26,009 nt of DNA. Origin: a virus. Below are positions 18,905 through 23,030 of the stretch, piece by piece (positions within the stretch are counted from its first letter, which is position 1; each line of letters opens with the position of its first letter). A program made the position numbers and the translations under genes. The stretch spans positions 1 through 26,009 of IMG/VR virus record IMGVR_UViG_3300045538_000112; one strand, written 5' to 3'. Under the pieces are notes generated by a model that made no database searches, was not told the DNA's origin, and was given only the letters and a program-made list of their open reading frames with translations.

Positions 18905-20791
18905 TTATACGCCGTCGTTGTTGTAAGCGAACGAGACTGGGTTGCGCAATGCAACGTCAACAGTCTGGAGCGCAACTACGCGGACAGTGCCTGTGTTTGA
19001 CGCCGTGTATGGATCAACCGTCAGGTCGAGGCCACCCCACATGCCGATCATGCAGTCGCTGAAGTTACCGAAGTAAACGTTACCAGCAGTTGCCTGCTGA
19101 GTACGAATGATTGGGTAACCGTTTGCTTGGTTGTTTTCAGCAACAAACATGCCCGAACCTGTGTCCTTGCTCTTCGTCTTCAGGCCACCGAGTGTTGCGG
19201 CGTCTGTGATGTAGGCAAGGTTGCCGAACAGTGCGTTGTCTTCTGCAACAGCAGTTTCCAAAGCAACCATTTCAGCAAAGGTTGGAACAGCAGCAGCAAA
19301 GCTGGTTGGCTTGTTGACACCGACGGTGTTCAAGATACCAGTTGGCTGGCCGCTTGCGCCTGAACCTTCAAGAGCGCCCTTGTCGATTGCCAATGCGAGA
19401 GCCTGCGTCAGGTCATCACGCACCAATGCTTCGATGGAAGGCGTCGATTGAAGAATCAATTGCCGCGTCATGTCGCTGAAAGCACCAACAGTCTTTGGCG
19501 TCAGCGATACAGTGCCGAAGGTTGGTTCCGACTCAGTAGGAGCGCCACCTTCTGTCGAAATCCATGTGCCAGCCGAAGCAGCGGTCTTCTTGGGGATTGC
19601 AACGTTGCCGACAAGACCGGGCAACATACGAGCGCCTGCACGCATGACCGAAGCCGAGTTGCGCAGAACGTCGATGAACTCGTTAGCAAGCAAGTTAGTT
19701 GCAACGATTTCGTTGTCGTCCGAGGTGTTGAGGTCACGCTGCTTCCAGACGCCGAGAACGTCGTTAGGAATCATAAGACCCTGTGCAGTGCGGCCATAAC
19801 GCTGTGCAGCGGCATCCGATGCTTCAAATTCAAAAGCAGCGGCTTCACGCAGACGGCGATCACCGGGGTTGGCAAGAGCGGCAATTGCACGGACAACCGA
19901 GAATTGACGAATTTCTTTCTTGCTCAGGCCAATGTTTTCGTTTTCCAATGGCTTGTCCGAACCGATTTCTTCAAGCAGTTCGCCACGGAATTGTTCGATT
20001 GACTTGCCAGACTTAATGGCAGCTTCAGCCAATGAGCGCTTGTTGTGACGAACGCCCAGTTCGAGGATTGCGGATACGTTGCGAGCAGCAGCTTCGGCAG
20101 CTTCAGCCCGGACGTTGTCCAGATTGACTTCAGACATAGTAACTTCCTTCTTGATGATAGGTTGAACTTTAGGTGTTGCTTGGATTTCTACATCTGCGCT
20201 ACGACCGATGCCGACTGACTGGTCTGCCGGTATAGACACAATTGAGGCCTCCATTGGCGACCACGAACGAACGAGATATTCATCTTTGTTCGAAGCGGAG
20301 CGCTCCATTTTGTTGACGCGGTAGCCGACGGAGACGTTCCCCCGGATTCCATCTACAACATCCCCGAACACCTCACTCGCTAACGCAGAGCGCCCAAACC
20401 GGACGTTGGCTCGTAACACTCTATCTGGTGAAAGTTCCACGGATTCAATAACACCAATTTGCCGCTCCGGATCATGGTCCAACAGCAATGGTGCGCGACC
20501 CGAACGAAGAAAGGCCATGTCAATGGACTTCTCGTCGTGCACTAAAACTTCTTTGCCGAAGCTACGTTCGACTGGGAGTTCGGATGAAAGAGCAATTTGA
20601 ACAGTGCGCTTTTTCTCATCGACGCCGCGCAAGGCAATGTCAACGCCAGCCGAACGGCGCTCAACGACGGGTTCTTTGCGCTCAACGTCTTCACCCTCTG
20701 TGACTTCGGCTTCTTCAGCCGCCTCCACAGCCTCAACGACTTCTTCAGTCGCTTCTACGGCATCCTCGACCGGCTCTTGCTCTTCTGACAT
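18905..20791 (-). CDS. Fused prohead protease and HK97-type major capsid protein
   Basis: A 628-residue fusion. Residues 2-45 are acidic (EEQEPVEDAVEATEEVVEAV). The HK97-type prohead protease follows: LLLDHDPERQIG with His106, GNVSVGYRV with Ser154 and WSPMEASIVSIPAD with Glu181. Next come a helical delta-like scaffold segment (about 219-340) and the HK97-fold capsid (GLMIPNDVLG; SEPTFGTVSLTPKTVGAFSD). ATG 20791 is chosen because GGGAG lies 6 bases upstream; the reading to 20818 begins with TTG. The protease should cut itself and the delta region from the shell during maturation. An internal restart site may yield capsid alone. Confidence 0.94.
   Translation of the reverse strand: MSEEQEPVEDAVEATEEVVEAVEAAEEAEVTEGEDVERKEPVVERRSAGVDIALRGVDEKKRTVQIALSSELPVERSFGKEVLVHDEKSIDMAFLRSGRAPLLLDHDPERQIGVIESVELSPDRVLRANVRFGRSALASEVFGDVVDGIRGNVSVGYRVNKMERSASNKDEYLVRSWSPMEASIVSIPADQSVGIGRSADVEIQATPKVQPIIKKEVTMSEVNLDNVRAEAAEAAARNVSAILELGVRHNKRSLAEAAIKSGKSIEQFRGELLEEIGSDKPLENENIGLSKKEIRQFSVVRAIAALANPGDRRLREAAAFEFEASDAAAQRYGRTAQGLMIPNDVLGVWKQRDLNTSDDNEIVATNLLANEFIDVLRNSASVMRAGARMLPGLVGNVAIPKKTAASAGTWISTEGGAPTESEPTFGTVSLTPKTVGAFSDMTRQLILQSTPSIEALVRDDLTQALALAIDKGALEGSGASGQPTGILNTVGVNKPTSFAAAVPTFAEMVALETAVAEDNALFGNLAYITDAATLGGLKTKSKDTGSGMFVAENNQANGYPIIRTQQATAGNVYFGNFSDCMIGMWGGLDLTVDPYTASNTGTVRVVALQTVDVALRNPVSFAYNNDGV
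20135..20149 (-). promoter_or_regulatory. Internal ribosome-binding site and ATG for capsid-only product
   Basis: AAGGAAG at 20143-20149 stands 5 bases before an in-frame ATG at 20137, exactly between protease and delta-like regions. Initiation here would make a 410-residue capsid protein (MSEVNLDNVRAEA onward) from the same mRNA. The site partly reflects the codons for Lys-Lys-Glu, so chance is possible. Confidence 0.55.
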
Positions 20792-20817: not shown

Positions 20818-20846
20818 ATCATATCACCCGCAACGGATATAATCAA
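20818..20846 (-). promoter_or_regulatory. Candidate sigma-70 promoter for the capsid gene
   Basis: TTGATT (20841-20846), a 17-base spacer and TATGAT (20818-20823) match the consensus in 9 of 12 positions. The start point would be near 20811, about 20 bases before the capsid ATG. The -35 box contains the stop codon of the HNH gene. It would let capsid be transcribed independently of the inserted gene. Confidence 0.4.
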
Positions 20847-21484
20847 CTAGCTAAACGCTTCCAATCATCTGGATGCATTGCGCCTTTGCGGAGGTTGCAC
20901 TTTGGCGTTAAAAGCTGAACATTGCTATCATCGTTCAAGCCACCAAGTGCAATGGGCATGATGTGGTCTAGGTGATAACCAGTTTGCTTTAGGTCCGCAC
21001 CGCAGCAGGCGCACTTGCCTCCTTGCGCTATCATTAGGCGCTCGACAATGTCTTTGGACAATGTGCCCCCGTTGCCCTTGGTGCGGGCGCGACGGTTTTG
21101 TTGCATAACCGCGTGTTTGTCAGGGTTGGCTATTTTCCATTTTCGAGCGTAGTCAAGCACTCTGTCAATATTGGCTGCCTTCCATTTGCGACCACGCTCG
21201 CGCTCCTTTTCCAAATTAGAATAATACCGTTTTCGGTCATGTTCCCGCACCTTTTCAGGGTTGGCGGCTTGCCACTTGCGGTAATACTCGCGGTGCTTTT
21301 CTGGGCTAGCTTCGCGATATTTGCGAGCCAAGTCACGAACCTTATTGGGGTTGGTTTCGCGCCACTTGCGAAGGGCTTGGCGTTTGCAAGGTATACAAGC
21401 CCCGCGTTTATTGCGCTCCCGCGCACCACATTTGCGGCAGGGCTTGACGTCCGTGGATTCAGTGCTATTAATCTGTTCATTCAT
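20843..21484 (-). CDS. HNH endonuclease with six 15-residue repeats, inserted between portal and capsid genes
   Basis: Three parts are visible in 213 residues. A zinc ribbon at 16-33 (PCRKCG, ACIPC) comes first. Then six 15-residue basic repeats run from 39 to 128. A C-terminal HNH nuclease (about 147-205) has GGKCACCGADL, HLDHIMPIALGG with His171, Asp173 and His174, then SNVQLLTPKCNLRKG. AAAGGAA precedes ATG 21484. HNH genes standing between structural genes are often homing endonucleases that cut phage genomes lacking the gene. HNH nucleases helping terminase also exist but usually lie next to the terminase genes. Homing is thus the likelier role. Confidence 0.9.
   Translation of the reverse strand: MNEQINSTESTDVKPCRKCGARERNKRGACIPCKRQALRKWRETNPNKVRDLARKYREASPEKHREYYRKWQAANPEKVREHDRKRYYSNLEKERERGRKWKAANIDRVLDYARKWKIANPDKHAVMQQNRRARTKGNGGTLSKDIVERLMIAQGGKCACCGADLKQTGYHLDHIMPIALGGLNDDSNVQLLTPKCNLRKGAMHPDDWKRLAS
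21101..21370 (-). repeat. Six tandem 45-base units coding 15-residue basic repeats
   Basis: Units are RKWRETNPNKVRDLA, RKYREASPEKHREYY, RKWQAANPEKVREHD, RKRYYSNLEKERERG, RKWKAANIDRVLDYA and RKWKIANPDKHAVMQ, in exact register. Every unit opens with Arg-Lys, and most have Asn-Pro-Glu-Lys in the middle. They probably form a chain of basic helices that lies along DNA. Confidence 0.88.
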
Positions 21485-21509
21485 TGGCGCAGTTCCTTTG
21501 CGTTAGTGC

Positions 21510-21543
21510 GGGCGAGTGGGACTGCTATCCCCTCGCCCTTTTT
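21510..21543 (+). terminator. Terminator-like hairpin facing against the late operon
   Basis: GGGCGAG (21510-21516) pairs with CTCGCCC (21532-21538), and inside it GGGA pairs with TCCC after a single bulged T, with a 6-base loop. TTTTT and then ATTTATT follow on the + strand. It has full rho-independent form for + strand transcription only. On the late mRNA the same hairpin has no U-run after it. Confidence 0.6.
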
Positions 21544-21545
21544 AT

Positions 21546-23030
21546 TTATTCCTCATCATCCTCTGTGTCAATGGGATCAACGCCCTTACTTGCCTCACTT
21601 CCGCCAAACGGGAAAAAGGCCAATTCAAGGCCATATTGTTTGGCGGCTTCGCGGTCGCGATCCCACTGTGCAAACGTTTCGTCCAAATCCTTACCATATT
21701 GGGCACAAACGTCTTGGGGCGACATAATGCCATTATGCATTGCGGTAACAGCAGCGTTAATCTCACGGGATGGGTCCACCCATTGCCAGCCCCGTGCGCG
21801 GAACTGGCTTGCGGCAAAAAATTTGGGAAAGCGCGTCGCTGGGATTGAGACGTAACCGAACTCCATAACGTGCATCAACCATGCCGAATAAGCTGGCACA
21901 ACGAAGTGTTCCATAAGGAACTGCTGGAACATTTTATAACCATCGCGCTCTTCCAATGCGCCTTGGCGAATGGAACTATACGATGTACCCTCAAGGTCGT
22001 TCGACAGCGAGGCATAGGAAACGCCAAGACCTGACGAGATGCCGCGCAATACACCCTTCTGGAACTCAGCGAATGCCGTCGCAGGGTGCGTTGGGTCGAA
22101 TGGCTTGAAGTCAACGCCGTTTGGCAACTGGTGGAATGTGCCGGGTTCAGCGTCAATGATCGGAACGCCATTGTCGTAATCGTCCGCAGGCGTATCTTCG
22201 CCGCTATCCGACGTAAAGAAGCCCATCTTCGATGCCGCCATACGCGATGCCACCAACTCAGCTTCACGATGGGCGTTGAGCATCTTCAACTGGGCAATGA
22301 CAGGAGCCATCCAAGGCTCACCCCGTGTCTGCCCTGCGCGGAGCGGATCATAAACGTGGATAATGTTCTTTGCTTCAATACGCTGAGAGACGTTGACGCT
22401 TATCGCCGCGTAATCAAGGTCTCCGGGGTGACGCTTCTTGACCCAGTAGGCAACAGGCCGCTGGTACGAATCGATTTCAATGCCCATGCGGATTTCATTG
22501 CCGTTCTTGGCCCGCTCGTTTTTCTGCTCGTCAATGAGATCAGCTTCAAAGGGGTGGAAGGCAATACCGTGCACGAAATTGCGGTTGGGGACTATTTGAA
22601 TGAAGGCCTCACCGTCACGTGCGGTGGACTCAATGACGTATTTCTGCAAGTCAACCCAGCTTAGACGACCATCTGCCGTGCAGTTCCCCTTCATGCAGAA
22701 CATGGCCCAAGCGTCTTCGATAATCTGGTTGCCGAAGGTGTCCAAAGAATTGTTGGTGTTACGCGCCTTGACCTGTAAGGTCATGCCCTTTTCACCAACC
22801 ACGTTGGTCTTGAGAAGCGTCAAGTAGCGTTTGACATAGACATCGTCACGAGCCAGCGCACGTGCGCGATTGCGCATCAGCACTAGGTCAGGCTTTAACT
22901 CGCTGTCTGGGCTGCGTGCAGACGCCAAAAAGTCAGCGAACAAACGCCCAGTATTTGCGGCATGGTAAGACCTTTTGGCCACTTTGCCTGTTTTCTGAGG
23001 CAACCCCAATGCTTCTCGCCAAAAACTCAT
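21546..23030 (-). CDS. Portal protein (lambda B family)
   Basis: A 494-residue protein with the lambda-type portal pattern: RARALARDDVYVKRYLTLLK near the start, ESTARDGEAFIQIV, IIHVYDPLRAGQTRGEPWMA and the C-terminal GVSYASLSNDLEGTSYSSIR. Portals form a dodecameric ring at one capsid vertex through which DNA enters and leaves. It overlaps the gpW-position gene by ATGA. The acidic tail (DPIDTEDDEE) is usual. No clear protease or scaffold fusion is present on this gene. Confidence 0.94.
   Translation of the reverse strand: MSFWREALGLPQKTGKVAKRSYHAANTGRLFADFLASARSPDSELKPDLVLMRNRARALARDDVYVKRYLTLLKTNVVGEKGMTLQVKARNTNNSLDTFGNQIIEDAWAMFCMKGNCTADGRLSWVDLQKYVIESTARDGEAFIQIVPNRNFVHGIAFHPFEADLIDEQKNERAKNGNEIRMGIEIDSYQRPVAYWVKKRHPGDLDYAAISVNVSQRIEAKNIIHVYDPLRAGQTRGEPWMAPVIAQLKMLNAHREAELVASRMAASKMGFFTSDSGEDTPADDYDNGVPIIDAEPGTFHQLPNGVDFKPFDPTHPATAFAEFQKGVLRGISSGLGVSYASLSNDLEGTSYSSIRQGALEERDGYKMFQQFLMEHFVVPAYSAWLMHVMEFGYVSIPATRFPKFFAASQFRARGWQWVDPSREINAAVTAMHNGIMSPQDVCAQYGKDLDETFAQWDRDREAAKQYGLELAFFPFGGSEASKGVDPIDTEDDEE

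What the first reader, a model, noticed from the sequence alone, without database searches (positions are those of the whole stretch)
20843..21484. HNH nuclease with six exact 15-residue repeats between portal and capsid genes
Six units in perfect 45-base register, each starting Arg-Lys, link a zinc ribbon to an HNH domain. This modular, basic array resembles DNA-reading modules of free-standing homing endonucleases. Repeat number could determine target length. The position splits the usual portal-protease block.
Basis: partly seen in the sequence, partly recalled or inferred. Interest (0 to 1): 0.6.

Follow-up and report, generated by a model that had tools for sequence, protein, structure and literature searches.

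The report
Mobile phage nuclease with repeat rod
A probable selfish DNA-cutting gene sits in a junction between two virus-head genes that is empty in most related viruses; it carries a chain of 15-residue helices whose length varies in whole units among relatives, and an RNA hairpin leader that goes with it to new sites.

Summary
ORF 20843-21484(-) encodes a Zn ribbon, six in-register 15-residue units (0 of 20,000 shuffles match) and an HNH domain, between portal and protease-capsid genes. The units are exact in length, not sequence (3-8 of 15 identical). Of 82 related portal-capsid junctions, 2 carry this gene, 65 no gene and 15 unrelated inserts. Homologues lie at three other sites in the same phage group, some in phages whose portals are 89-92% identical. 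Unit number runs from about 2 to 12, with an exact 135-bp (3-unit) difference between near-identical phages. A 696-bp, 99.4% identical tract on a diverged backbone resembles co-conversion and stops where array meets HNH domain. New: a leader with two predicted hairpins accompanies the gene at three sites and occurs nowhere else in 0.94 Mb; the insert lies just upstream of a conserved capsid promoter-like element. Cleavage, target site and any link between unit number and target length are untested. Best reading: free-standing HNH homing endonuclease, new variant of a known kind.

The parts
20843..21484 (-). HNH nuclease ORF, 213 aa: Zn ribbon + 6 x 15-aa array + HNH
21386..21439 (-). Zn-ribbon core C16-x2-C19 ... 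C30-x2-C33
   Evidence: translation; all four Cys invariant in 7 close relatives
21101..21370 (-). array of six 15-residue units, predicted as 14-residue helices separated by single-residue breaks at Asn
   Evidence: register, shuffles; AlphaFold2, array pLDDT about 86-95, pTM 0.36 / 0.51
20861..21013 (-). HNH catalytic domain (D173-H174 ... N188 ... C196-N197)
   Evidence: above Pfam cut-offs; invariant residues; HNH folds, Z up to 8.8; dN/dS about 0.09-0.11 (dS near saturation)
21485..21545 (-). 61-nt leader between portal stop and HNH start; arrives with the gene, absent from empty alleles
21510..21538 (-). leader hairpin 1 (GGGCGAG/CTCGCCC outer stem, GGGAT/GTCCC inner stem)
   Evidence: leader dG -26.6 kcal/mol, z -4.4; same structure with changed stem pairs at other sites
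21488..21502 (-). leader hairpin 2, 4-bp stem with 7-nt loop AAGGAAC holding the Shine-Dalgarno-like sequence
20818..20846 (-). promoter-like TTGATT-N17-TATGAT before the capsid gene; its -35 overlaps the HNH stop codon, as it overlaps the portal stop in many empty relatives
21093..21788 (.). 696-bp tract 99.4% identical to L001 (4 mismatches) on an otherwise 70-80% identical background; spans portal 3' end, leader, ribbon and array
21546..23030 (-). portal protein, lambda family (left neighbour)
   Evidence: PF05136 E=1.6e-96
18905..20791 (-). fused prohead protease + major capsid protein (right neighbour)

Best explanation
A free-standing HNH homing endonuclease gene of a phage, packaged as a small mobile unit: a two-hairpin leader plus the ORF. 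Proposed mechanism: the basic Zn ribbon and helical array dock on DNA in or next to a head or replication gene of a co-infecting phage that lacks the insert; the HNH domain nicks or cuts there; repair from the carrier copies the unit and some flanking DNA into the empty site. The insert is tolerated because it sits between the portal stop and the capsid's own promoter-like element, breaking no gene. The array changes by gain and loss of whole 45-bp units and by recombination at its border with the HNH domain, which would let target preference drift. The leader hairpins probably control translation by holding the ribosome-binding site, as in several T4-type homing genes. Shown by sequence: domain layout, empty alleles, several insertion sites, conserved leader, mosaic tract, unit-number variation, purifying constraint on HNH. 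Inferred: DNA binding by the array, cutting, homing, leader function.
For: Empty vs filled junctions: 65 of 82 with no gene, 2 with this gene, 15 with unrelated inserts. The annotated relatives CRP-811, CRP-831 and CRP-406 have no gene there. Same subfamily at other sites: before a gp10-like tail gene (L106/L177), after it (L179, L180-183), before primase (L178), the last empty in sister L207 with 91% identical primase. Mosaic: the portal's last 240 bp are 100% identical to L001, and its last 150-bp bin is only 76% identical to L114, although L114 is the closer match over most of the portal. Leader found only with this gene in 0.94 Mb. Unit number about 2-12, with an exact 135-bp gap between L002 and L203. 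HNH residues conserved, dN/dS about 0.09-0.11 vs about 0.37 for ribbon+array against L106. Relatives in named phages lie next to terminase, primase, helicase and lysin genes. Precedent for free-standing HNH homing genes, hairpin leaders, and repeated DNA-binding domains with domain swapping: PMC2988022, PMC10448857, PMC12724721.
Against: No cleavage, target or homing assay exists. Only two genomes carry the gene at this junction, one a 5.2-kb contig. The identity tract covers only two thirds of the gene, so it records recombination between two carriers as easily as homing into an empty allele. No target motif shared by the different insertion sites was identified. dS is near saturation, so the dN/dS values are rough.
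Confidence: 0.72

Rival explanations
1. A cargo gene (moron) that uses its nuclease against co-infecting phages (exclusion weapon) or host DNA, and moves only by ordinary phage recombination, without self-directed homing.
For: The tract boundary inside the gene fits plain homologous recombination. The junction also holds non-nuclease inserts, so it is a general tolerated slot behind which the capsid keeps its own promoter-like element.
Against: The same subfamily is found at several unrelated sites in closely related phages with its leader, which plain homologous recombination between equivalent loci does not explain.
Confidence: 0.15
2. A structure-selective junction resolvase of the T4 endonuclease VII kind working in recombination.
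For: Best PHROG is labelled endonuclease VII (phrog_1035, 2.5e-25).
Against: Pfam Endonuclease_7 scores 17.3 bits, below its 23.6 cut-off, while HNH and HNH_5 exceed theirs. Patchy presence and changing sites do not fit a core recombination enzyme.
Confidence: 0.06
3. A DNA-packaging accessory of the HNH type found beside terminases, displaced to the portal-capsid junction.
For: Lies in the head module, three genes from the large terminase. An HNH protein between large terminase and portal is invariant in some phages (HrdP, 89 of 89 Skunavirus genomes; PMC12724721).
Against: Absent from 80 of 82 related junctions. Sister phages carry it elsewhere or carry only diverged relatives. A different HNH protein lies just upstream of terS in several of these phages.
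Confidence: 0.04

Closest known systems
Free-standing HNH homing endonucleases of phages (T4 mob genes; I-HmuI-like HNHEs of Skunavirus)
   Same: Intergenic HNH genes beside essential genes, patchy presence, several insertion sites per phage group, flanking-exchange signature, hairpin leaders in some (PMC2988022, PMC12724721)
   Different: Those place HNH at the N-terminus with a C-terminal binding region; here the HNH is C-terminal behind a Zn ribbon and a 15-aa helical array, with no NUMOD/IPA/AP2 domain found by Pfam
T5orf172 homing genes with repeated CapR/DUF723 Zn-finger domains (PMC10448857)
   Same: Repeated binding modules with copy number changing by recombination; domain swapping between binding and nuclease parts; placement next to capsid and terminase genes
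   Different: Different nuclease family; their repeats are whole Zn-finger domains, these are single 15-residue helices
seg43(25), a segD-like homing gene of Aeromonas phage 25 (PMC2988022)
   Same: Very stable RNA hairpin immediately upstream of the ribosome-binding site without sequestering it
   Different: SegD-like (GIY-YIG) family, T4-like phage; here a second small hairpin holds the Shine-Dalgarno-like region
phrog_1035 'endonuclease VII' / HNH proteins of Foxunavirus, Rhizobium phage RHph_X2_25, Gordonia phage Yvonnetastic
   Same: Similar ribbon/array/HNH layout in several members, next to replication and packaging genes
   Different: At most about 38% identical; the sampled isolates lack the clear two-hairpin leader

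Membership tests
Free-standing HNH homing endonuclease | HNH catalytic domain with conserved residues | tested here: met
Free-standing HNH homing endonuclease | Gene stands alone between intact genes, not inside an intron or intein | tested here: met
   portal and capsid ORFs intact; no Rfam match above gathering score in the region
Free-standing HNH homing endonuclease | Empty alleles of the insertion site exist in relatives | tested here: met
   second site; second phage group: L217 vs L203
Free-standing HNH homing endonuclease | Same element at different sites in related genomes | tested here: met
Free-standing HNH homing endonuclease | Co-conversion of flanking DNA | tested here: inconclusive
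   696-bp tract fits, but ends inside the gene, so ordinary recombination is not excluded
Free-standing HNH homing endonuclease | Sequence-specific cleavage of the empty allele and biased inheritance in mixed infection | not testable with these tools
   needs bench assays
Terminase-linked HNH packaging protein | Conserved presence beside terminase genes across the phage group | tested here: not met
   2 of 82 junctions; other positions
Endonuclease VII (PF02945) | Pfam family score above curated cut-off | tested here: not met
   17.3 vs 23.6 bits
IscB/HEARO RNA-guided nuclease | RuvC domain plus HEARO/omega RNA | tested here: not met
   213 aa, Pfam finds only HNH-type domains above cut-off; no Rfam HEARO match in the window region or in 10 related loci

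The most novel reading that the evidence does not exclude
The 15-residue helix is a new modular DNA-reading repeat: three hypervariable positions (11, 14, 15) on an otherwise more constant scaffold contact DNA, and unit number (about 2-12) sets how long a site is read, so that whole-unit gain or loss retargets the nuclease.
Probability: 0.15. Interest if true: 0.85.

Novelty: new variant of a known kind. Interest (0 to 1): 0.5.

Why it matters
Phage homing nucleases drive gene exchange and exclusion between co-infecting phages, but how they change targets is poorly known. This family offers a natural series: closely related HNH domains with arrays of 8, 11 and 12 units, some still 91% matched at DNA level, plus empty and filled sites. 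That makes 'does repeat number or identity set the target' directly testable. The leader adds a marker for finding such elements.

Tried and rejected
Packaging role: rejected by patchy presence. DNA-level tandem repeat in the window's array: none. Rfam: no gathering-level family in ten related loci; in the window region only a meaningless weak snoRNA hit. Known fold for the array: Foldseek of the array model alone against PDB gave one match at E=9.4 and the second look none; this does not show that the fold is new. Helical-face clustering of the hypervariable positions: not significant (p=0.28). The single bacterial-genome scan gave only two distant HNH-domain hits. Literature search for 14/15-residue repeats in HNH proteins: nothing relevant. 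MAFFT alignment of the more distant leaders (A6) is unreliable and was not used for counts. Excess of changes in ribbon/array within the shared tract (4 of 4, all nonsynonymous): numbers too small to claim selection.

Full report
Observation. The ORF at 20843-21484 on the minus strand encodes 213 residues. Residues 39-128 are six contiguous 15-residue units in 45-base register (window 21101-21370). Lag-15 self-identity is 33 of 90 against a shuffle maximum of 19 in 20,000 trials. Pairwise, units share only 3-8 of 15 residues and 18-29 of 45 bases, and no DNA tandem repeat is called, so this is a diverged, presumably old array. N-terminal to it are four ribbon cysteines; C-terminal is an HNH domain above the Pfam cut-offs. 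The array is basic (28 K/R, 14 D/E).

Structure. AlphaFold2 predicts each unit as one 14-residue helix, with a single-residue break at the near-invariant Asn of the N-P motif: seven helices in a row including one before unit 1 (array pLDDT about 86-95, pTM 0.36 and 0.51, so the relative placement of helices is uncertain). The HNH part resembles HNH domains of Cas9, IscB and the Gme nickase, which reflects the shared HNH fold. The array alone has no credible PDB match by Foldseek. Over 122 distinct units, N7, E9, K10, R1 and W/Y3 vary least, and positions 11, 14 and 15 are the most variable (entropies 3.1-3.5 bits).

Junction. Portal and capsid searches gave 82 distinct portal-capsid junctions, counting the window and three annotated Roseobacter phages. 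Two carry this HNH (window, L001), 65 have no intervening gene, two carry a different 1.6-kb insert (L113, L114) and 13 a 2.7-3.5-kb cassette of several ORFs; in one (L174) a different HNH_3 gene is nested inside the cassette. In empty alleles such as L156 the portal TGA runs straight into a promoter-like TTGATT-N17-TATTGT and the capsid start. In the window the HNH TGA occupies that same position. The element TTGAnn-N17-TATnn(T/A) precedes the capsid in 67 of 79 junctions, against 0.8 expected in shuffles. Inserts therefore land just upstream of the capsid's apparent promoter.

Mobility. Homologues lie elsewhere in the same phage group. L106/L177 (60% identical; portal 89% identical to the window's) has it before a gp10-like tail gene; L179 and L180-183 have it after that gene; L178 (55%; from the contig whose portal is 92% identical) has it abutting primase. 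The primase site is empty in L207, L209 and L210, whose primases are 89-91% identical. A second, unrelated phage group (L002, L202, L203) has an array-HNH gene just before its capsid gene; a relative with a partly 72% identical capsid gene (L217) has none there.

Mosaic. Window and L001 are identical except for 4 of 696 bases from 21788 to 21093, while the portal upstream is about 80% identical and the sequence next to the tract on the HNH side about 70%. The tract stops at the border between array and HNH domain. Over most of the portal the window is closer to L114, but its last 150-bp bin is only 76% identical to L114. This looks like co-conversion, or recombination between carriers, with the array half exchanged separately from the catalytic half. 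HNH dN/dS is about 0.09-0.11, ribbon+array about 0.37 versus L106 (dS near saturation).

Repeat number. Called units run from about 2 to 12 (weak units in distant proteins make low counts approximate). L002, L202, L203 and L204, with closely related HNH domains, have 8, 11, 11 and 12 units. L002 and L203 differ by one internal gap of exactly 135 bp, and in L204 the 45-bp units are 91% matched at DNA level. Stand-alone ribbon/array ORFs without HNH also occur (L003, L004, and a second copy in L202).

Leader. The 61 nt before the gene fold into a strong hairpin and a small one holding the Shine-Dalgarno-like sequence in a 7-nt loop (-26.6 kcal/mol, z -4.4). The same layout with changed stem pairs precedes the homologues in L177, L179, L180 and L183, and similar two-hairpin leaders precede more distant ones (L191, L193, L194, L185). 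Control leaders of 52 other genes average z -0.55, none below -3.5. A covariance model finds the leader only before these genes in 938,533 bases; weaker hits are the same palindromes read on the other strand. L178 (overlapping an upstream ORF) and the L202/L204 group lack it. Covariation within the close set is modest (2 pairs with both sides changed). Hairpin leaders controlling translation are known for T4-type homing genes (PMC2988022).

Reading. The evidence fits a free-standing HNH homing endonuclease (confidence 0.72) better than packaging, resolvase or passive cargo. It is a variant of a known kind; repeated binding domains and domain swapping in phage homing genes are already described for another nuclease family (PMC10448857). 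No description of these 15-residue arrays or of this leader was found in the searched papers, which does not prove there is none.

Noticed in passing
window 20818-20846(-): Conserved promoter-like element TTGAnn-N17-TATnn(T/A) directly before the capsid gene in 67 of 79 related junctions, its -35 overlapping the upstream stop codon in many empty alleles.
   Followed up: partly
L114 (and L113), just upstream of the capsid start: About 20 nt (AAGCGTTAGCTAGTTGATT) match the 3' end of the window's HNH gene although another insert is present: possible scar of a lost HNH copy.
   Followed up: no
L035, L117, L118, L049, L115, L141, L067, L163, L171 between portal and capsid: A 2.7-3.5-kb cassette of several ORFs, one with many short ...NGQTFYxxTV... 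or ...DNSNxFYxxT... repeats, occupies the same junction; function unknown.
   Followed up: partly
L174:3279-3926(+): A different HNH gene (HNH_3, phrog_20891) is nested inside that cassette.
   Followed up: partly
L033:2237-3112, L078, L089, L094, L104, L123, L168: A separate, larger multi-ribbon HNH gene lies upstream of the terminase genes in several relatives; candidate packaging HNH.
   Followed up: partly
L003, L004, L202:4035-4406, L007, L018-L023: Stand-alone proteins made of the 15-residue array, with or without the ribbon and with no HNH domain; possible free regulators or decayed copies.
   Followed up: no
L225, L226 (Foxunavirus FoX3, FoX5), gene between terS and terL: Array-HNH relatives annotated 'glycolate dehydrogenase' in GenBank, apparently a misannotation.
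   Followed up: no
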